DNA of 40,159 bases from Cladosporium sp. IMV 00045 (taxonomy: Eukaryota; Ascomycota; Dothideomycetes; Cladosporiales; Cladosporiaceae), in the NCBI GenBank assembly GCA_001931905.2, contig MSJI02000340.1, positions 1 to 40,159 of the forward strand, in the 5' to 3' direction. The notes below the pieces were generated by a model. The model did no database searches. It was not told where the DNA came from and worked only from the letters and a program-made list of their open reading frames with translations. This document shows, one piece after another, positions 4,041 through 22,745 of the stretch; position 1 is the first letter of the stretch; every line of letters begins with the position of its first letter. The translations under genes were made by a program, and so were the position numbers.

Positions 4041-4739
4041 GTCACGACTGCACGCTTAAAAATCTTTGCCACCAGCAACAACACGCCTGAACTTGTCTTC
4101 ACGTCATCTCTTGCTCGATTAAAGACTCTGGCGCTCGAATATCGGCAGAAACATGTCTCAGCCGTCTCCTCTATCTTCTGGCACTTGTCATTGCTGTGGA
4201 TCAGCAATGCGGCGATCAGAAACCGGTCAGATCCAGCCTGGCACTTCAATATAATGCTTTGCATCTATGCATATATTGACCTAGCTCTGTCATTCCGAGT
4301 CGCGGTGGGCCTTCTCAGAGCCATCTTGTTCATGGCCGTCAGTCTTGAGGCAATTTCGCATCAAGAGGTAGAGGGCATGATACGCGCATTGCCTGGTGAT
4401 GGCCGATCGGGCAGCACAGCAGACGGGCCCATGTACAAGAAGTCGCGTTATATCGTTGACCTAGATTGTGCTGTCATCGACCAGTCTCGAGCTCAGGTAG
4501 TCGGTTTGGCTGAGAAGTTAGACGATGCTCTCTTATTTGACGCTTTCGCTGAGGAAGACTGAGATGCAAGTAGGTCTGATTATCCTTTATCTGGCCCAGC
4601 TCTTGATTTTGACCTATTTACCGGTGACCAGGGACGCAAAATGGCGATGGAAGACCTCCAGCATGCCGCATTAAACAAATGCTTTAGACCATCATCTTCA
4701 GCTGGCTCGGTTTCCATGCAAGAGCTTCCGGAAGAATAA
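4041..4739 (+). pseudogene. Relic of a fungal Zn2Cys6-type transcription factor C-terminus
   Basis: One reading frame runs for 232 codons with a single in-frame TGA (4560-4562) and ends at TAA 4737-4739. The translation reads like the C-terminal part of fungal-specific transcription factors: a hydrophobic helical stretch (IFWHLSLLWISNAAIRN, then AYIDLALSFRVAVGLLRAIL), a basic/aspartate block (YKKSRYIVDLDCAVID) and the closing acidic helix (AQVVGLAEKLDDALLFDAF). There is no zinc cluster, no start codon in context and no matching upstream exon, so only the distal third survives. The TGA could have come from CGA by a C-to-T change. The family link is by remembered pattern only; an intact short gene with an unseen intron is the alternative. 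Confidence 0.4.
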
Positions 4740-5205
4740 AACGCTAGCTCGGTGTAGCCGCATGTCGCCACTTTTACTCTTGCTTCTTTTGCCCAGACCG
4801 AGACGCCACTAATGCATCACTGCTGTACGAATATTGGGCGTTGCAGCTTGAGGCGACGTTGGCTGATTCGGTCAGCCAATAAACATCTCGCTCTACCTGA
4901 TAGCATGCCATTCGCTTGATATGCACTGCCAGCGTAAGCTGCGGGGCTCCAGATGATTTCCTAAAGAAGACGCATTTGAATTAGTTCTACCGGAATCTCA
5001 GTGCAAACGAAACCAATGTCCGGCCATTGGGCCCGCCCTCAGGCGAAGGAGGCCCGCACCGATTTGTAAAGGTACAATCCAGCGGGTCATTTCTCCTTTG
5101 TCCGGATGCTCAACGTTTGTATTGTACATCTTCTGGGGATGTGTTCAAGTTTTTATTTCTTCATCAATCTCGCTAAAGATATGTTATCTGGCTAGCTGTT
5201 AGAAG
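4740..5205. other. Intergenic, nothing recognised
   Basis: Neither strand carries a long or coding-like frame here. It separates two probable gene relics and belongs to the gene-poor interval between the lyase and the proline-rich gene. Confidence 0.45.
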
Positions 5206-5609
5206 CTAGCTTACCCAGCCACGCAAGTCTACATTTTGTCCCGCTTTGCGGAAGATCTCCCAACCACGCCTCATTTGACCTCGGATATTATCGGTGTACT
5301 CAAATACAACAGACTTCTCCAAACATGCGGCTTTAGTCGCTCTAGATGTACCAGGGATTGCTTGAAAACCGCTAACCAAAGGATTTCGTCCAAATCCAGA
5401 CTGAGGTTCACTCTCGGTTAAGGTTGCTCGCACAGTATGCAACAAGGGCACATTTCGAAACCCAGGCGAGAGACTTCAAGACTCCATGGTGCACCAAACC
5501 ATATCAGTTGCGAGTCACATGGAATCCTAAGGCCTAGCGTCAAGAGTTGGACATCGGCAGGCTCAAGTTCTGAGTTTGAGAAAGCTTCGGAAACTCTAAA
5601 GTTGCGACT
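5206..5609 (-). pseudogene. Probable decayed coding segment, unknown family
   Basis: The minus strand reads as coding in two abutting frames. From 5609 a frame with motif QLIWFGAPWSLEVSRLGF is open to about 5470; it then has to shift by one base to continue as NVPLLHTVRATLTESEPQSG and on to VFEYTDNIRGQMRRGWEIF, ending in TAG at 5206-5208. No GT..AG intron explains the shift, so a frameshift in a dying gene is the simplest reading. The family is not recognised. It overlaps the proposed first exon of the plus-strand proline-rich gene, so one of the two may be wrong. Confidence 0.3.
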
Positions 5610-7117
5610 TCACCTGCTGGTTCTTTCGCGGCGCACTCGAGTGTATCAATAAGCGAGCGTGAAGAGCGAAGTGTTGAAGATCGCCTGCGCAAGGCACGAC
5701 AGAGTAATGAGTCCGATCATCAGGTATGGGTAAGCGCCGACCAAAGACACAAACCTTCATAAGTCTGATTCCTGACGACCGTTGCTGACAGCGACCGCCA
5801 TTCAGGATCTTGCCCCGGTTCATGAGCTTGCGGCGTGGCGATACCCAGCCCGTCACGCTCTCTGATCTCTCTGAAGATGGTTCAATCACCAGTTTTGAGT
5901 TGTTCAAAACAGAACGATACGCTCGGCTTCTCGTGTCTGAGCGAGACCCTGAGAAACCTGTTGTTACTCCCTTGACTCTACCCAAACGCTTCGAAAGTCA
6001 GAAAATTGAGACACTTCCTCTTTGGGCCGGTCTGGGGCAAGAAACACGGGAAGAGGTCATGCAGTACTTGAGTCGTGAGCGCAGTCTGCCTTCGACCTTT
6101 AGATGGAATCTTTGCGCAGTGCAACATGTAGGGCAACTGTCGGTTTGGAGGAGGGTTCTTCTTTCGACCATGAGTATAGATTACTCTTCGAATCCCTCCG
6201 CAGACTACATCATCTTGTTCGCCGCTGTTTTCGAAAATCCAGCGAGCGACAACAAAGCTTACCCAGAGAAAAATGAACCCTCCCAGGATGGTGTGCCGTC
6301 AACGAAGAAAACGAAAGGTCTGCTAGCAAACACTGAACTTGATTTCCTCGCTCCGCCAGCCCCGAATGAATCAAACGAGGGTGAGAAAACAGAAAAGAAG
6401 AAGAAGAAGAAGAAGACAGAGAAAGATCCCTTTGATGTGATGCCACCCCTCCTACCGGTTCCTCAGGGGAGTCTGCCGGCAGAAACTTCGTCAAAACCGC
6501 AAGCTCCCTTTCCGCCGCAGACATCACAAACTCCTCCTGGGAAAACTGTTTCACCAGCACTTCAAATGCAAGCTCCCCCCTTTCCGCCGCAACCGTCACA
6601 ACCTCCTCCTTGGAACACTGTTTCATACACAGACCAAACGCAGGCTCCCCCCTTTCCGCCGCAGCCGCCACAACATCATCCTTGGAACAATGTTCTACCT
6701 GCAGACCGAATGCAACACCCTGGCTCTACGAACATGCCAAACTTCCAAAACCCAATATCTGGACCCTCGGACTTTCAAAATGTTTTTGGTCCGCAGATGT
6801 CTCTTCCGCCCCCCATAACCCTTCCTCAAGATTACTCGCGAAACCCTCCGAACGTCTTTCAGCCATTTCCAAATGTTTTCCCACAGCCAGATATCAACAC
6901 CACTGGTATCTACAGCGGGCGGCGCAATGGCTCGGATCTAGACCTCCGCACGACCGCTCGCCGTCGCGAAGATGGAGACCTTCGCCGCTATAACAGTCGT
7001 AGTCCCAGTCCATTCCGCGACACAAGCTTTTCTGACAAGGCCCATGTCGATTTTCCAGCCAGGCTGGGCAGGGCTAAACTCCCGAGCAACGACGGGTTGA
7101 GGCGTAGACAGCAGTAA
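5580..7117 (+). CDS. Proline-rich repeat protein of unknown function (5' end uncertain)
   Basis: The solid part is the exon 5792-7117 (442 codons with stop). The frame can be extended through a 68-bp intron (5724-5791; GTATGG donor, CCTGAC branch, CAG acceptor) into a charged upstream segment (SEREERSVEDRLRKARQSN) open from 5580, but no start codon was found there; the first ATG in the main exon is 5822. In order: a folded-looking region of about 150 residues, a lysine run encoded by AAG repeats, and three proline-rich units of 23-24 residues (QAPPFPPQPSQPPPWNTV type). The tail is Arg/Ser-rich (RRREDGDLRRYNSRSPSPF), reminiscent of RNA-associated proteins. No enzyme motif is visible. The family is not recognised. 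Confidence 0.6.
6395..6415 (+). repeat. AAG microsatellite coding a lysine run
   Basis: Seven AAG/AAA codons in a row inside the proline-rich gene encode a run of lysines that could act as a nuclear localisation signal. Such triplet tracts are prone to in-frame length change. Confidence 0.75.
6500..6712 (+). repeat. Three tandem proline-rich units of 69-72 bp
   Basis: Units begin at 6500, 6569 and 6641 with CAA/CAG GCT CCC and encode QAPFPPQTSQTPPGKTV, QAPPFPPQPSQPPPWNTV and QAPPFPPQPPQHHPWNNV. The second and third share long exact DNA stretches, so the expansion is recent compared with the first. All spacings are multiples of three. Confidence 0.8.
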
Positions 7118-7413
7118 GCTTGGAAGTGATAAGATAAAACAAACGATGTTCGCAATACGTCAATCAGAGTCTGTGGCCAGCTGGGTGGTTCGGAGGGACA
7201 CCGCCTCACCCACGTTCCCGATCTTGTTTGTCTTTACACCGTGGCCAGAAGTACATTGAACGCTGGTCCAGGATACTGTTCCCAAATCCATGGATGGTGG
7301 AGTTGCAAAGACTCACAACGTTATCTATTCGTCATTATCTATCAAACTGTAACTCAGTTACTCCGTCGAAAATCTCTTCCGCCTTTGTCCAATTTACATT
7401 TAGCGCAACCACA

Positions 7414-10141
7414 TTACCAAAGCCTTTTCACTTTCCTTCCCCCAATTCGGGGATGCCTGACTCTTTCGTCCCATTCTTGCGGTAGCTTGACTTCTACCAG
7501 GCTGAAGAAGTACTGCAGCGCGTCCGGATAGAGCATGCAAGCATTCCTCCAATCCAGATCCACCCCTGCTTTCAGGTTCCAATCTGCATGTTTGAGTTGG
7601 CTTCTGAGGAAGGCGAGCTCGCTGGCAGGAAGTGCAGGCTGACCACGATGACGATAATAAAGCTCGTAATTCGGTAAAGTCCGCAAATATTGGGCATGCG
7701 TCGCGTATCGGGCACGCTTCTTCGTCTCAAAGTACGAAAGTATTGTGTAGCGTGCATTGTCTAGAGCCCAACGGCTGAAATGAATGGAGTTAGACTTATC
7801 ATGTAAGGATGGACAGATGGGAGCCATACTCAAGTCGCTTTGCGCCAATCCATTTGTCTTGGGCTTGCTGCACCGCGAGCGCCAATCGTTCACACTCATG
7901 TGGACAGCCATCAGGTCCAGCACAAATCGCACATCGTGGGTCCAGGCCTGGAACCTGCAATTTTGTTGAAGAATCGGCGGTACCTCCCCACCTTGTTGGG
8001 TACTGATTAGCATTTGGGTATCATAAGTCGGATCTCCGAAAACTGGACATACCTTCTCCCCCGCGGTGCTGACCTGCGAGCCCCAGCTCGTTGTGACGAC
8101 GGATCTCGCCAGTCATCAAAGTCAAACCTCACATTGCCAGCAGGCTCCGATCTGTCATACGTTGCACGCGTCGAAGACGTTGGGGAGTTTCCTGATATTG
8201 CTGAATCATTGTCGTCAGGGGCCGCGGGTGGATGATTACGCTCTTTTGGCAAGTTGTACGTGTCATTTAATAGCCCACCATTCCGCAAAGACTGCGACGC
8301 TTCAAGGTTCTCGAAGTCGGTCTGCTGATCGGTTCGCCATCGTGGTACATTCCACAGTTTACTCGAGAATCCGACTGCTTGGTCTCTTGCTGCGATTGCA
8401 GAAGCACCATTGTCACCAAGTATTCCGGCAAGCCATGGTTGATGCGGTCTCGTCGCATGAGGTTCCACTGTAGCAGTAGAGACTCTCGCCGGAAGTTGTC
8501 TGTTGAACGAAGTTGTGAAGTTAGGCCTTGATAAGGGCACAGGCTTGGCATGAGAAGAAGTCGTGTCGCGTGGTCTTTCTGCATCGCTTCCCAAAGGAAA
8601 AGAAGGTATCGAAGAAGTGACGTCTTGGTTCGATGTTTGCGGAGCTGGGCCACTTGTGCTAGGAGCTGGCCCGTTGCCCGGAACACTCGAACTTGCCTCA
8701 CCTCCAGTAGCGGTATCACCATTTCCCCTTGACGACTTTGGCTCTATTGACATCAAGGCAATGTCCTCCAGATGCATTGAAATGTGGCGGTACATTGCGC
8801 GGGCCGGACGAACTTCCATCCGGCAGAGAGGACAATTGATATCCTGTTCAGGCAGTACATGCTTTTCGCACATATCAGCAAGGTCCGTGAGCTCTTTGGA
8901 TTTGCATTGAGTGCTGTGCTCCGCGCGCATATGATGTTCAAAATCAGCCTTTGACGAAAAGGTATGCGAACACTGGAAACAGCAGCGCCATGAGCGGCCG
9001 TGCGAAAACTTTACGTGTGCGCCGTAAGCACTTCTTGACATGTACCGTCGACTGGGTCGACTGCAGTCCTCAAAGAGACAGACATACGGTGCGAGGTCTT
9101 CCAGGAAATGCTTCCTTCTTCTGGTCAGATTCGTTGCTGCGGTGATGAGTTTGGGGCATCTCACCGGAGCTTGGAGTTGTTCGGACATTCGATCTCATTG
9201 CGACACAGTGAACATTGATAATCCCCGTAGATTTCGGTTTCGCCTGGTTGGCATTAGTGTGTAAACATTGTGAGATTGGTAGGTTGCAAATACCACTCGT
9301 ACTCGAAGACAACGACGTATCATCGGCGCTACATTCTGCCTCAGTTGTCGCCTTGTGAGATCGTGCGCTTAACACCGGTCTCACGTTCCTCACGATTTCA
9401 CTTAGAATGTCATCATCATTTAGCGTATCCTTCGAAGATTCGTGACGGCGGATCAGATTCAGGATCTCATCCCGACGGTCGCTAACCGATCTGGCGAGCC
9501 TGTCCACAATGCAATCTTGAGCGTCTGGGAATCTTTTCAGAACTTCAAGATGAACTGATGCATCGCTTGAGTTGGGGTGCTTAGTCACAGAATCAATGCC
9601 TGCGAGGACATCAATGAGAGCATCTGACAATTGCATCAAGCCATTAGTGGCTTCATCGAGATCCTCAATGATCAAGCCCAGTGTTTCGGATTGTGCACCT
9701 TCAGTGGACTCAGAATTTAATTTCATAGGAATGTCGGCTTGCTCAGTAAGGTTTTCAGAGTCCAGATCTTGTGTCGGAGCATTAGTTGCATTGGTGAAAA
9801 GGTGTAGAGCTAATCCGTTAGCAGCTTGGACATTAGTCTCACGTGGAGGCGATATTATACAAGCTTAACTTACTTTCACCAACATCATCCTTGAGGTTAT
9901 CAAGAATCTCTTTCAACGTATCTCGCAGATCTGGGGAAGATTGATGGAGTAAATATTCCAAATCTTTGCCCCTTTTCGTCTTGAAATGGACGTTGCTCGA
10001 CCAGATTGTAAAGCGATCAAAGATCTCTTGGAGATCTTTGAGCCTCCACGAAAAAGCGATATTTGGAGCTGAAGACGAGAGCTTCGTAATCAGATCTCGA
10101 AACGCTGAAGCAATACTCTCGATCACGCCACTCAACTCCAT
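7414..10141 (-). CDS. C2H2 zinc-finger protein with STAND-like N-terminal region
   Basis: Five exons (10141-9874, 9809-9294, 9243-9165, 9120-8053, 8002-7414) splice in phase to 839 residues through introns of 64, 50, 44 and 50 bp; intron branch points GCTAAC, CACTAATG and GCTAATC are visible. Residues 1-260 are helical and resemble the N-terminal region of fungal STAND/NLR-like and related proteins. About 270-390 holds the zinc fingers: CSLC with LRRRKHFLEDLAPYVC, a finger CFQCSHTF-HHMRAEH, and a canonical C-x2-C-x12-H-x3-H (CPLCRMEV...YRHISMH). A long Ser/Pro-rich linker follows, then a C-terminal tail of about 200 residues (RWALDNARYTILSYFETK). It is divergent from the DUF7580 gene. Likely nuclear or a signalling scaffold; target unknown. 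An intron-like 7775-7829 stretch is left unspliced in this model. Confidence 0.8.
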
Positions 10142-10439
10142 GGTCTTTCGATGTTGCGTGTGAGAATTGAGAAGTGCATGCGAAAATAACGCAAATCTGG
10201 AGACTCCGACAACTCTCTTCGCTTAATCTTCTCAGTGGGTTAGTGAGGTCATCAACCAAGCCACTGCATGCATGCTTCATGGCAGCTGACTTGCATCCTG
10301 CATCTGTTGAGCTGACTTTCATGCATATTGCATGCACCTACATGAGCTACGCGCGGAGAATCCTTAGCGCTGACGAGCTGCGAACCTCTGTCAAGTTCAC
10401 GATGGGACACTTCATCACTCGTTCTACACGGCAGCAGTC
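10142..10439. promoter_or_regulatory. Shared promoter with clustered TGCAT motifs
   Basis: This 298-bp gap separates the start codons of two divergent genes. Between 10265 and 10336 the core TGCAT occurs repeatedly: TGCATGCATGC at 10265-10275, then single sites near 10292 and 10299, ATGCAT at 10321-10326 and TGCATGCA at 10329-10336. AGCTGACTT also occurs twice. No TATA box is obvious on either side. Confidence 0.5.
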
Positions 10440-12127
10440 ATGTCCGGTGTTGAGGTTATCGGCGTGGTTCTCGGGGCGCTGCCTCTCCTTGTAGCAGCCT
10501 TCACTGTTCAGCATGAAACTCGCAATCTAATCGACAGGCTTAGACGTCCAGAGCGTGTGCTCCGAAGCTTGCACATCAGGCTAAGGGTACAGCACCACGT
10601 CTTCAAAGACACAGCTGAAACGCTTTTGCGAGAAGTGTTTGGCGAAGCAATCGCTCATGAACTGGTCCGAGACCCGAAATCAGAGCAATGGAAAGATGCC
10701 AAGCTCACGAACAAGATGAAGCAATATCTCGCTGAGAGGTATGAGGATTGGCTTGCGATCGTGGACGAGGTGAATACGTCAATCAGAGAAATCAAGACAC
10801 AATTGCAAATCGACCCCGACGACGTAAGTCTTATGCATCCGTTCCAGGTTTCACCGCCGATGCTGACTTGTCCAAGGATTCTTCAGTCCCCAGTCTTGCT
10901 GTTGATGTCGTACAAAGATTGAAAACGGGTTTTGGAAAGTCCAAAATCGACAAGACCTTAACCAGCATTGAATCAGACGTCTCCTCGTTCAAGAGGCTCA
11001 CAAGCGGAGCAAGAAGACTAGCAAGAAAGCCAACTCAGCGCAACGGTGATCCGCCAGACTTCAAACAGCTGCGAGTAGCAGCTAAGACGACCTACGAGAC
11101 CATCAGCTCTAGAATCTCTTGCCTTTGCAGATCCAGCCACGTGCTCTGTCTGGGGCTCGACCTTGCGCAGAACGATGATGTGTGGATAGGCACGAGTACA
11201 AGCAACCTTAGACGAGGCCATGGGGTTGTACTTGCAACAAGACTTAAACCCGCAGATCAACCGCAGTATGTTGGGCACATCGAAGTACCTACTGCGATCG
11301 ACGGACAAATTGAACAGCCTCGTGTCCAGACCGGTCTCCAACGTGACACCTCGGGTGGTTCAGAGGAGAAATGCCTCAAGTCCTTGATACACAGCGGAGC
11401 ATTTGCAAGCTCCACTGGGATCATTCCGTTGCTCGAGATCGCTAAACAAGAATTGCCTCATGTCGTTGCTGTGGACACTTTATTCACCACCTCGAGATAC
11501 CAGAAAGGGAAGCTCAAGATTCGTGCTTGTCAGAGAATCGCGCTATTCGTTGCTTCAAGTCTCCTGCAATTGTACGAAACTCCTTGGCTCCTACAACCAA
11601 AACTCTGTGAGCAAATAGCCCTAATTCGCAGCACAGACGGTCAGGTGATTCCTACGCTCTTCATACAGCAGACCCTCCCTGTAAGCCCAACTGGCCTTCC
11701 AGGAGCGAGCGTTGACGATGCGACGGATTTGATATTTATACGCAACGAGTGGGTCTTTGGGCTCGGTCTATTCCTGATTGAGCTGTGTCTTGGTGAAACG
11801 ATTGCAACACTCAAGAAACCAGAAGACAGCTCCATCGTTGGCATGTTGCCACAACTGGTAGAATTCCGAACAGCACAACGTTTGATGGATGACGTTTACC
11901 AAGTGGCTGGCTCACGATACGGAGATGCTGTGTATCAATGCATACACTGCGACTTCGGCCGAAGGAAGTACGATCTCAGAGATGAAGCCTTCTGTAAGGC
12001 TATCTTCAAAAATGTGGTGACACTTCTTGAAGAGGATGTTTTACATTCACCGCATGGCCAAAATGCGGGTTTTACTCACGTGTCGAGCCCTTTTCCAACT
12101 TTTGATGCGGATCCGATATTTCTGTGA
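10440..12127 (+). CDS. DUF7580-type fungal protein with HeLo-like N-terminus
   Basis: Two exons (10440-10823, 10877-12127) joined by a 53-bp phase-0 intron (GTAAGT donor, GCTGAC branch, CCAAG acceptor) give 544 residues. The N-terminus MSGVEVIGVVLGALPLLVAAF followed by an amphipathic helical region is typical of fungal proteins with a HeLo/HET-S-like or prion-inhibition-type start. The C-terminal half matches the pattern of the fungal DUF7580 family: a degenerate kinase-like fold with ...NEWVFGLGLFLIELCLGE and the closing SRYGDAVYQCIHCDFG-RRKYDLRDEAF motif. The catalytic residues of a true kinase are not seen. Family members are abundant in plant-associated ascomycetes and often sit beside immune- or incompatibility-like genes; the molecular role is unknown. 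It shares its promoter with the zinc-finger gene. Confidence 0.8.
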
Positions 12128-14905: not shown

Positions 14906-15895
14906 ATGGCTGCCTCCCGGTACTGCCCCTCATGCCTCACAAAGGCGTCGCCAACAACCCTCTTCCGCACCGCCCGCCCAGTCGCCCCGCCGCCCTCCTT
15001 CCTCCGCCCATTCCACACATCCTCTCCCCTCGCCGCCGGACAATCTCAGAACGCTGCCAAATACAAACGCAAAGACGCGCCGGCCAAGAAGAAGAAGAAG
15101 GCTTCGACATCATACTCCACGCCCGACCTTCGAGATGCGCTGCAGTTCAGCTTGGTTGATGCCATGCGGTAAGCAAACAATCGCAAGCAAAATCTCTAGG
15201 ATCCCATTTCAAAATGCTAACATTTCTTCTGCAGCTACCTTCGCGCCGCCGAAGTAGGTCGCAACCCTTCCTCCTCCAAATACGAGCTCCACGTCCGCCT
15301 CAAGACGCTCAAAAACGGCGCCGTCATCCGCAACCGCATGCGCCTCCCCCACCCCGTCAAGACCGACATGCGCATCTGCGTGATCGCCGACCCCGAAAGC
15401 AGCGCTGGGAAAGCCGCCAAAGCCGCCGGCGCCTCGCTCGTAGGTGAGGAGCACGTCTTCGACATGGTCAAGGAAGGGCGCATCGAGTTCGATCGCTGCC
15501 TGTGCCACGCCGACAGCCTACCCAAGCTGGGCAAATCGGGCATCGCGAGACTTCTGGGTCCCAGGGGGTTGATGCCGAGCGCGAAGATGAACACCGTCGT
15601 GAGAGATGTGGCTACGAGTGTGAGAGATATGGTTGGTGCGTCGGAGTACAGGGAGAGAATGGGTGTGGTGAGGATGGCCGTTGGCCAGCTGGGATTCACA
15701 CCGGAGGAGGTGCAGAGGAACATCAAGGCTTACATCGACGCGTTGAAGAAGGACATGGCTGCGCTCAGCGATCGGATATCGAAGGACATCCACGAGGTGG
15801 TCTTGAGCAGCACCAATGGTCCTGGTATGAGCTTGAACGGCGAGCTGAGGGGTCCCAACAGCCCGCCCACTAAGGACTTGAGCACTCTGGGTTAG
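14906..15895 (+). CDS. mrpl1: Mitochondrial large-subunit ribosomal protein uL1m
   Basis: Two exons (14906-15168, 15235-15895) with a 66-bp intron (GTAAGC donor, GCTAAC branch, CTGCAG acceptor) give 307 residues. The N-terminus (MAASRYCPSCLTKASPTTLF ... FHTSSPLAAG) is a mitochondrial presequence with a typical processing site; a lysine run follows. The body is ribosomal protein L1: RLPHPVKTDMRICVIAD, the DMVKEGRIEFDRCLCHADS segment, and the signature GPRGLMPSAKMNTV. It binds large-subunit rRNA at the L1 stalk of the mitoribosome. Its 3' end converges on the NADH pyrophosphatase gene, 130 bases away. Confidence 0.93.
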
Positions 15896-21148: not shown

Positions 21149-21802
21149 TCACCCTTGAGCAGGCGGCGGCGGCCGTCTTCCGGGCGCCCTCCTCCTTCCG
21201 CCGTCCCCTTCGGCAGCTTGCGCATTCCTCGCCTTGAATCTTGCCTTTAACTGCTCCTGCTTCGTTTTCGCCTCGTCGAACATGTAGGCATCGATGCGAA
21301 TCTTGTCGCCAAAGTCCTTGATGCCGGCCTGGCTGACGTACCTCTTCTCGGAGGTCTTCCTGCGCGCTGCGAGCGCGGTTCTGGAGCTGGGCCGGCCATC
21401 GGTGTTCTCCAGAACGCTGTAGTATTCGAGGAGATTATCGGCGGTCTGCGCTGCGGTGGGGAGGGTCTTGACGGTGGCCTTGTTGTAGCTGTAGGTGGAG
21501 GTTCGCCATTCCTGCGCGCCGGGCACTGGGCGGGCGAAGCGGACGCCTAGACGTTGGACGATGCTGCCGTGAGACGGCGGAGGAGGGCGGGCGTTCGGGT
21601 TCGAAGGGCCGTGACCGACTTTTGTCTTGGTGATGTGCAGTAAAGGTTGGTTTGCATTTTGCTGGGTGGATTGGGCTGGAGGAGAGGAAGCTGCCTCTTG
21701 TAGGGCGGCCGGAGTGCTGGAGAAGGCTCGTTTGGTGGGGAGTGCTGGAACTGTCGTTCTCCTCGCGAAGGTCCGCGCGAACGAGCAGCCTGGGCAAGCC
21801 AT
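21149..21802 (-). CDS. Nuclear-encoded N-terminal half of mitochondrial ribosomal protein uS3m (proposed)
   Basis: A single exon of 217 residues. It opens with a mitochondrial presequence (ARRTTVPALPTKRAFSSTPA, Arg-rich, no acids). The core STYSYNKATVKTLPTAAQTA and RRKTSEKRYVSQAGIKDFG / DKIRIDAYMFDEA follow the two conserved N-terminal blocks of fungal mtDNA-encoded Rps3: the YNKN..KxLP block and the block ending in an 'ISKAEIKHT..K..ITLYVYN'-like strand. It then ends in a Lys/Arg- and Pro-rich tail without the C-terminal S3 domain. That missing half is encoded next door in the opposite direction (22140-22745). The assignment rests on remembered family pattern plus the partner gene, so is less certain than the partner. 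The ATG at 21802 begins the presequence; the frame is open further upstream without benefit. Confidence 0.6.
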   Translation of the reverse strand: MACPGCSFARTFARRTTVPALPTKRAFSSTPAALQEAASSPPAQSTQQNANQPLLHITKTKVGHGPSNPNARPPPPSHGSIVQRLGVRFARPVPGAQEWRTSTYSYNKATVKTLPTAAQTADNLLEYYSVLENTDGRPSSRTALAARRKTSEKRYVSQAGIKDFGDKIRIDAYMFDEAKTKQEQLKARFKARNAQAAEGDGGRRRAPGRRPPPPAQG

Positions 21803-22139
21803 TGTTGGTATTGTCGTGGTGGGAGGTAGGTATGTGAAGTATGCAACCCGCAGTATCGCTGGATTCACTGCCCTCACCAAGTCTCGATGCGCTCGCTGGA
21901 GTCGCGGAGGTCGTGCTCTCGATCGGGAAAGGCGCCGCAGCCCTCCACGAATTCAGCCGAGCCCATCAATTCTTCAATCGAGTCTTCAATCAATTATTGA
22001 TGGACACTTTGATTAAGCACAGCGGCTCACTCCCGCGGCAAATTGCAGTCCTCATTGCGGTGCTATACCACTTCCACACCTACGGTTAACCCTATACCAC
22101 TCCCACTCCCACCCATCTCCCTCGACAAACACCGCAATC
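21803..22139. promoter_or_regulatory. Bidirectional promoter of the two uS3m half genes
   Basis: Only 337 bases separate the two start codons. Near the middle, CCATCAAT (21963-21970) is answered by its exact inverse ATTGATGG (21996-22003), with two more TTCAATC copies between. No TATA box is visible. This symmetrical layout suits coordinated, equal transcription of both genes. Confidence 0.5.
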
Positions 22140-22745
22140 ATGTCAGCACGTCCAATCGGTCGCGCTGCAAAGCAACTTGCCACCGACCTGTTCAGCCCCA
22201 AGATGCAAACGCCATTCGAGTCGCTCCTTTCGCGAACCTACGGCAAGCCCGTCGAACTCAACCTTACCAAGCTCAACAAGCCCGAATTGAACGCGCACAT
22301 TCTCTCGAGACTCGTCGCCCAAAAACTGAAGGATCGCCGTCTAAACGCGCGCAAGGTGGTCCGCGAGGCCGTCTGGGGCGCACAACTGCCGACTCAGCAA
22401 TCCCAGGTGCCCTCACAAACCGATCACGCCGCCGCCGCACTGAAGGCTTTGGCCAAGGACCCATCGACATCTTCCCTGGCGCGCTCCAAGGCACCCATCG
22501 GCCACATCATGCACTCTCTCAGGATGAAGCAAGTCAGTAGCATTAGCGTCCTCGCTAGCGGTCGTCTCGGCAAGCGTATGACGGCCAACATGGCAGAATA
22601 TAAGCACGCAAGGAAGGGTCTCACGAGCAAGGGCCCTGGCTACGTCCTCAGAGGCCTGAGGAAGAACCACATCGAATACGGCTGGAGCAAAGGCAAGAGA
22701 AGAGTTGGTGCGTTCGGTATCAAGGTACACATTGGTCATTCATGA
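22140..22745 (+). CDS. Nuclear-encoded C-terminal half of mitochondrial ribosomal protein uS3m
   Basis: A single exon of 201 residues. The C-terminal ribosomal protein S3 domain is clear: ISVLASGRLGKRMTANMAEY corresponds to the S3 'sGRLxGaxxARxE' block, and LRKNHIEYGWSKGKRRVGAF followed by GIKVHI to the closing 'LrADIDYG...GVIGVKVWI' strand pair. Upstream, LLSRTYGKPVELNLTKLNKP and LNAHILSRLVAQKLKDRRLN match the fungal mitochondrial Rps3 middle block (KKVEFN..L.LNSDIF...LKLRNR). The first 30 residues (MSARPIGRAAKQLATDL) look like an import presequence. The N-terminal half of uS3m is absent here and appears in the divergent neighbour. It acts in the mitochondrial small subunit, near the mRNA entry site. 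Confidence 0.82.
   Translation: MSARPIGRAAKQLATDLFSPKMQTPFESLLSRTYGKPVELNLTKLNKPELNAHILSRLVAQKLKDRRLNARKVVREAVWGAQLPTQQSQVPSQTDHAAAALKALAKDPSTSSLARSKAPIGHIMHSLRMKQVSSISVLASGRLGKRMTANMAEYKHARKGLTSKGPGYVLRGLRKNHIEYGWSKGKRRVGAFGIKVHIGHS

What the first reader, a model, noticed from the sequence alone, without database searches (positions are those of the whole stretch)
21149..22745. Mitochondrial ribosomal protein uS3m (Rps3) appears nuclear-encoded and split into two head-to-head genes
The plus gene (22140-22745) carries the clear C-terminal S3 domain (SGRLGKR...; ending VGAFGIKVHI) and the fungal mitochondrial Rps3 middle block, but no N-terminal half. The adjacent minus gene (21149-21802) carries a mitochondrial presequence and the N-terminal blocks of fungal mitochondrial Rps3 (YNK..VKTLP; SQAGIKDFGDKIRIDAYMFD), but no C-terminal domain. 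In most filamentous ascomycetes rps3 is one gene on mtDNA, often inside an intron of the large rRNA. The simplest reading is transfer to the nucleus followed by fission and inversion of one half, giving a two-piece uS3m assembled after separate import. The C-half call is strong; the N-half call depends on remembered family patterns.
Basis: partly seen in the sequence, partly recalled or inferred. Interest (0 to 1): 0.88.

Follow-up and report, generated by a model that had tools for sequence, protein, structure and literature searches.

The report
Mitochondrial ribosome protein split in two
In this black-mould-like fungus, a mitochondrial ribosome protein that many moulds encode as one gene in the mitochondrion appears to be made from two separate nuclear genes lying head to head, a kind of split described for ciliates and seen here in fungi.

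Summary
A profile of 14 unsplit relatives (357 positions) matches the minus ORF over positions 47-161 (E 5e-30) and the plus ORF over 168-357 (E 1e-60): complementary, without overlap. The N-half's only PDB match is Neurospora mitochondrial S5/uS3m (profile E 5e-5). A second copy on contig C532 keeps the head-to-head pair. Of 108 relatives, 45 hold only the N part, 32 only the C part, 29 both; named unsplit ones are Mycosphaerellaceae, named split ones mostly Cladosporiaceae and Teratosphaeriaceae. The break lies inside the N-terminal domain. No further VAR1-family match exists in the assembly, nor rps3 in a RIP-mutated mtDNA insertion; the true mtDNA is absent. In print, two Capnodiales mtDNAs lack rps3 and no nuclear copy was found in Dothideomycetes (PMC5626475, passages). 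Best reading: uS3m moved to the nucleus, was split, and is rebuilt after separate import. Split uS3m is known in ciliates (PMC7326499, passages); ten library searches listed no fungal case that I recognised. Not shown: expression, import, assembly, the inversion, or whether fission happened once.

The parts
21149..21802 (-). uS3m N-half gene, 217 aa: Arg-rich, acid-free start (first 30 residues), lineage-specific stretch, then the uS3m part (residues 87-197 in the profile match), ending in an Arg/Gly/Pro-rich tail
22140..22745 (+). uS3m C-half gene, 201 aa: short amphipathic start, last helices and strand of the N-terminal domain, then the C-terminal domain (residues 11-201 in the profile match)
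   Evidence: domain layout by homology
21803..22139 (.). 337-bp spacer between the two start codons, possibly a shared two-way promoter; 290 bp in the second copy and largely conserved
   Evidence: promoter function inferred

Best explanation
The two genes are the N- and C-terminal halves of the mitoribosomal small-subunit protein uS3m (Rps3/Var1/S5 family). An ancestral mitochondrial rps3 moved to the nucleus as one gene, still so in Mycosphaerellaceae, and was split in the line leading to this Cladosporiaceae-like genome at a variable linker inside the N-terminal domain; one half now lies inverted, so both are read outwards from a shared spacer. Shown: two conserved, complementary genes, in duplicate. 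Inferred: each product is imported on its own signal, and the N-half (two helices, two strands) pairs with the C-half (helix, third strand, C-terminal domain) on the small subunit to rebuild one uS3m at the mRNA entry channel.
Confidence: 0.88

Rival explanations
1. Only the C-half is a working uS3m; the N-half gene has drifted to another role or is a dying remnant, so this lineage runs on a shortened uS3m.
For: N-half constraint is weaker (dN/dS 0.50 against 0.19); it has no Pfam family; no significant fold match for the half alone.
Against: The N part is kept in 45 N-only proteins, with E98, W99, S102, Y104, P115, L124, S157, D163 and G165 invariant over 45 aligned split and unsplit rows; it stays linked to the C-half in several other records; both copies are open here. 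The known shortening, in Holozoa, removed the C-terminal, not the N-terminal, domain (PMC7326499, passage).
Confidence: 0.07
2. An intact rps3 still sits in the mtDNA and does the job; the nuclear halves are extra copies.
For: The true mtDNA is missing from the assembly.
Against: The mutated mtDNA copy holds the core genes but gives no rps3 match; mtDNAs of two related species lack rps3 in print; the nuclear halves are conserved and duplicated.
Confidence: 0.03
3. The two halves are joined into one protein by trans-splicing of RNAs from opposite strands.
For: Head-to-head halves of one protein; this cannot be excluded without transcripts.
Against: Each half has its own start codon, stop codon and start region, kept in both copies; Cladosporium and Teratosphaeriaceae records list them as separate proteins.
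Confidence: 0.02

Closest known systems
Ciliate split uS3m (Tetrahymena: mS92, mS31 and mtDNA-encoded uS3m; PMC7326499, passages read)
   Same: uS3m made from separate chains; the C-terminal piece carries one strand of the N-terminal domain plus the C-terminal domain, as inferred for the C-half here
   Different: Three proteins from two genomes there; two proteins, both nuclear and neighbours, here; an independent origin is inferred
Mycosphaerellaceae unsplit nuclear uS3m (Dothistroma P0071, Zymoseptoria P0084, Zasmidium P0073 and others; some named uS3m in UniProt)
   Same: Homologous over the full length of both halves; nuclear, with a targeting-like start
   Different: One gene of about 360 aa; its start resembles Teratosphaeriaceae N-halves, not Cladosporiaceae ones
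Fungal mtDNA rps3/var1 (Neurospora S5, 6yw5_CC; yeast Var1)
   Same: Same family by sequence and fold
   Different: One chain, encoded in mtDNA (recalled, and in print for Neurospora); in Neurospora a long stretch lies between the parts that match the two halves
Other mitochondrial genes split into complementary genes (cox2a/cox2b and others; review PMC5664110, passages read)
   Same: Complementary genes whose products are thought to join again
   Different: Other proteins and lineages; no fungal case in the passages read

Membership tests
uS3m (Rps3/Var1/S5) | C-terminal S3/VAR1 domain | tested here: met
   Pfam VAR1 40.9 bits, cut-off 33; 6yw5_CC E 1.2e-9
uS3m (Rps3/Var1/S5) | N-terminal part homologous to fungal uS3m | tested here: met
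   Met by the minus gene: E 5.4e-5 to 6yw5_CC; unsplit profile 97 bits. No Pfam match
uS3m (Rps3/Var1/S5) | Both parts on one chain | tested here: not met
   Two ORFs on opposite strands in both copies; so called a split variant, each gene being a half of the family
uS3m (Rps3/Var1/S5) | Presence in the mitoribosome small subunit | not testable with these tools
   Needs proteomics or cryo-EM
uS3 N-terminal domain (KH type by recall) | Elements from both sides of the break lie in one domain | tested here: met
   Only on the unsplit homologue P0071; not modelled as two chains
uS3 N-terminal domain (KH type by recall) | Pfam KH profile match | tested here: inconclusive
   None listed for 14 unsplit proteins up to E 10; fungal uS3m is very diverged
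uS3 N-terminal domain (KH type by recall) | The N-half alone is recognised as part of that fold | tested here: inconclusive
   Same helix-helix-strand-strand order but no significant match
Split uS3m as in ciliates | Complementary separate genes with the break inside the N-terminal domain | tested here: met
   ciliate layout from passages
Functional nuclear transfer | Nuclear composition, targeting-like starts, loss from mtDNA | tested here: inconclusive
   Window 52% G+C; starts; loss inferred from a mutated mtDNA copy only
NUMT pseudogene | Broken frames, mtDNA composition | tested here: not met
   Open frames, dN/dS below 1, window G+C 0.52

The most novel reading that the evidence does not exclude
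Across Cladosporiales and Teratosphaeriaceae uS3m is a two-gene nuclear protein broken inside its N-terminal domain, at a place like the one ciliates use; because NCBI places unsplit Mycosphaerellaceae and split Teratosphaeriaceae in one order, the break either arose twice at the same linker or was undone by re-fusion in Mycosphaerellaceae, making uS3m a repeatedly separable module.
Probability: 0.5. Interest if true: 0.82.

Novelty: new variant of a known kind. Interest (0 to 1): 0.74.

Why it matters
It offers an answer to a stated gap: rps3 is missing from the mtDNA of two Capnodiales, and the authors found no nuclear counterpart in any Dothideomycete (PMC5626475, passages). It would be a fungal case of a mitochondrial ribosomal gene that moved to the nucleus and was then cut in two, and it comes with unsplit sister forms, so transfer, fission and possible re-fusion can be compared across living species. 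A break inside one small domain of a protein at the mRNA entry makes a natural test of two-chain folding, parallel to ciliates.

Tried and rejected
Rejected: chance ORF; NUMT pseudogene; a third rps3 elsewhere in the assembly (VAR1 matches only at the two known loci). Leftovers of a duplicated whole gene around the pair, as expected if an inverted duplication lost complementary parts: none found, which does not exclude that route. Gene trees do not settle one fission against two: the N tree groups all split rows (100/100) with Neurospora on the unsplit side; the C tree groups Teratosphaeriaceae-type rows with the unsplit rows (90/72); neither alternative is rejected (AU p 0.40 for split rows together in the C tree, 0.35 for Teratosphaeriaceae-type plus unsplit in the N tree), and Neurospora sits on very long branches. 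The trees used 34 of 76 N-part and 31 of 63 C-part sequences at hand (both window and C532 copies counted) plus Neurospora; the group labels of unnamed rows are my guess from similarity. Fold search of the N-half alone gave nothing significant. Searches for relatives' DNA in genome contigs and viral contigs confirmed nothing (0 of 80 and 0 of 43 pattern matches), so gene orientation in other species could not be read. An alignment of N-halves, C-halves and unsplit proteins together was misaligned and not used. P0030 and P0031 match neither part of the profile by my cut-offs. P0100, counted as N-only, looks like a cut-off unsplit gene, and P0026-P0029 are short and may be fragments. A Pfam scan of 3,333-residue frames missed cox1, so pieces of 900-1,100 residues were used; the minus strand of L009 and the plus strand of L011 were not Pfam-scanned, though searches covered them for rps3.

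Full report
Observation. The minus ORF 21149-21802 (217 aa) and plus ORF 22140-22745 (201 aa) are present as described. The plus protein matches Pfam VAR1 above cut-off and Neurospora mitochondrial S5/uS3m, chain 6yw5_CC, over residues 234-300 and 393-503. The minus protein has no Pfam match up to E 10; its only match among 177,635 distinct PDB sequences is the same chain, residues 51-139, E 0.033.

Proof of the N-half. A profile of 16 split N-halves, with no unsplit protein in it, again has 6yw5_CC as its only PDB match, E 5.4e-5. A profile of 14 unsplit proteins (357 positions) matches the minus protein over positions 47-161 (E 4.9e-30) and the plus protein over 168-357 (E 1.2e-60; E-values for 110 proteins). 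The two matches tile most of the profile with six positions between them; the first 46 positions, the start region, are not shared. Among 533 six-frame fragments of the two loci, only these two ORFs and their counterparts in the second copy score with this profile; the next is at E 0.64.

Second copy. The assembly (49.9 Mb, 954 contigs) carries a collinear second copy of much of this window on C532, 83-95% identical over aligned blocks longer than 200 bp (999 bases of C532 were not fetched). The pair is there too, in the same head-to-head layout, with a spacer of 290 bp against 337 bp here. dN/dS between copies is 0.50 for N and 0.19 for C.

Relatives. Three protein searches (35 of 2,884, 32 of 275 and 74 of 7,993 scored candidates reported) gave 108 distinct proteins: 45 with only the N part, 32 with only the C part, 29 with both, 2 with neither. 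Named proteins with both parts: Dothistroma, Zasmidium, Cercospora, Septoria, Zymoseptoria, Lecanosticta, Pseudocercospora, several on contigs of 2.6 to 4.2 Mb, so nuclear. Named N-only: Cladosporium, Hortaea, Meristemomyces, Teratosphaeria, Acidomyces, Teratosphaeriaceae sp. CCFEE 6253. Named C-only: Cladosporium, Cryoendolithus, Peltaster, CCFEE 6253. No C-half named Hortaea and no N-half named Cryoendolithus or Peltaster was returned, so in those the partner is presumed.

Mitochondrial side. VAR1 matches in the assembly lie only at the two copies. The only cox1 and cob matches are on C737, in a stretch of about 29 kb with 18-27% G+C per kilobase, joined to DNA of nuclear-like composition, with in-frame TAA, TAG and TGA and a RIP-like dinucleotide signature (TpA/ApT 1.46 against 0.57). 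It holds matches for nad1, nad3, nad4L, nad6, several nad2/4/5-type regions, cox1-3, cob, atp6, atp8 and atp9 but no rps3: two of three profiles gave no hit up to E 10, the third nothing better than E 0.67, and a Neurospora N segment nothing better than E 0.11 (best single domain 0.05). As a control the Neurospora segments score E 1e-8 to 1e-24 with these profiles, though they are not RIP-mutated. So rps3 had probably left the mtDNA before this copy was made. The true mtDNA is not in the assembly.

History. Chosen Teratosphaeriaceae-type N-halves and Mycosphaerellaceae unsplit proteins share a targeting-like start (52 of 70 pairs have at most 2 of 200 shuffles as high); Cladosporiaceae-type starts match neither (1 of 40 and 1 of 28). 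That favours one nuclear transfer for the first two families and a replaced start, or a separate event, in Cladosporiaceae. NCBI taxonomy puts Dothistroma (Mycosphaerellaceae) and Hortaea (Teratosphaeriaceae) in Mycosphaerellales and Cladosporium and Cryoendolithus in Cladosporiales, with Peltaster unplaced in Dothideomycetes (families of the other named genera are recalled). So the split state looks scattered: two fissions, or one fission and a re-fusion. Gene trees do not decide.

Known background. Tetrahymena builds uS3m from three proteins of two genomes, with one strand of the N-terminal domain on the C-terminal piece (PMC7326499, passages). A 2017 study reports no rps3 in Zasmidium cellare and Zymoseptoria tritici mtDNA and no nuclear counterpart in any Dothideomycete (PMC5626475, passages); the named unsplit proteins here, from the same genera, bear on that. 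A 2017 review says relatively recent functional transfers had not been described in fungi and, in the passages read, lists no fungal split (PMC5664110). UniProt already names some unsplit proteins uS3m, so nuclear uS3m is known at the level of database annotation. Nine literature searches on the fungal question and one on split uS3m listed no paper that I recognised as describing a split fungal uS3m; only listings and a few passages were seen, and subscription journals are mostly absent from that library.

Mechanism. Shown: two conserved, complementary genes, duplicated, sharing a short spacer. Inferred: two-way promoter, separate import (the C-half start is amphipathic here, 0.45% of shuffles as high, and in the second copy, 1.8%, but less so in two relatives, 7.7% and 8.6%; the N-half start is Arg-rich and acid-free but not clearly amphipathic), and joining of strands from both chains into one domain on the small subunit.

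Noticed in passing
G000:C737:1-29300 (L009-L011): Near-complete mtDNA joined to DNA of nuclear composition and with a strong RIP-like signature: cox1 and cob carry many in-frame TAA, several where Trp is expected by eye, and tRNA-like genes have odd anticodons. A misassembled join was not excluded.
   Followed up: partly
window 1-40159 and G000:C532: The two contigs are largely collinear at 83-95% identity in aligned blocks, suggesting a duplicated or hybrid genome of about 50 Mb.
   Followed up: partly
window 4590-11279: About 6.7 kb here corresponds to only about 340 bp on C532 (4594-4934) in the aligned blocks: an insertion here or a loss there. Contents not studied.
   Followed up: no
window 15338-15895: ORF that looks by eye like mitochondrial ribosomal protein uL1m, about 5 kb from the uS3m pair (name recalled, not tested).
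   Followed up: no
P0030: A protein filed under a bacterial MAG (Haliea sp.) begins with a fungal N-half stretch and continues with a bacterial-type domain (PF14339): probably a chimeric contig.
   Followed up: no
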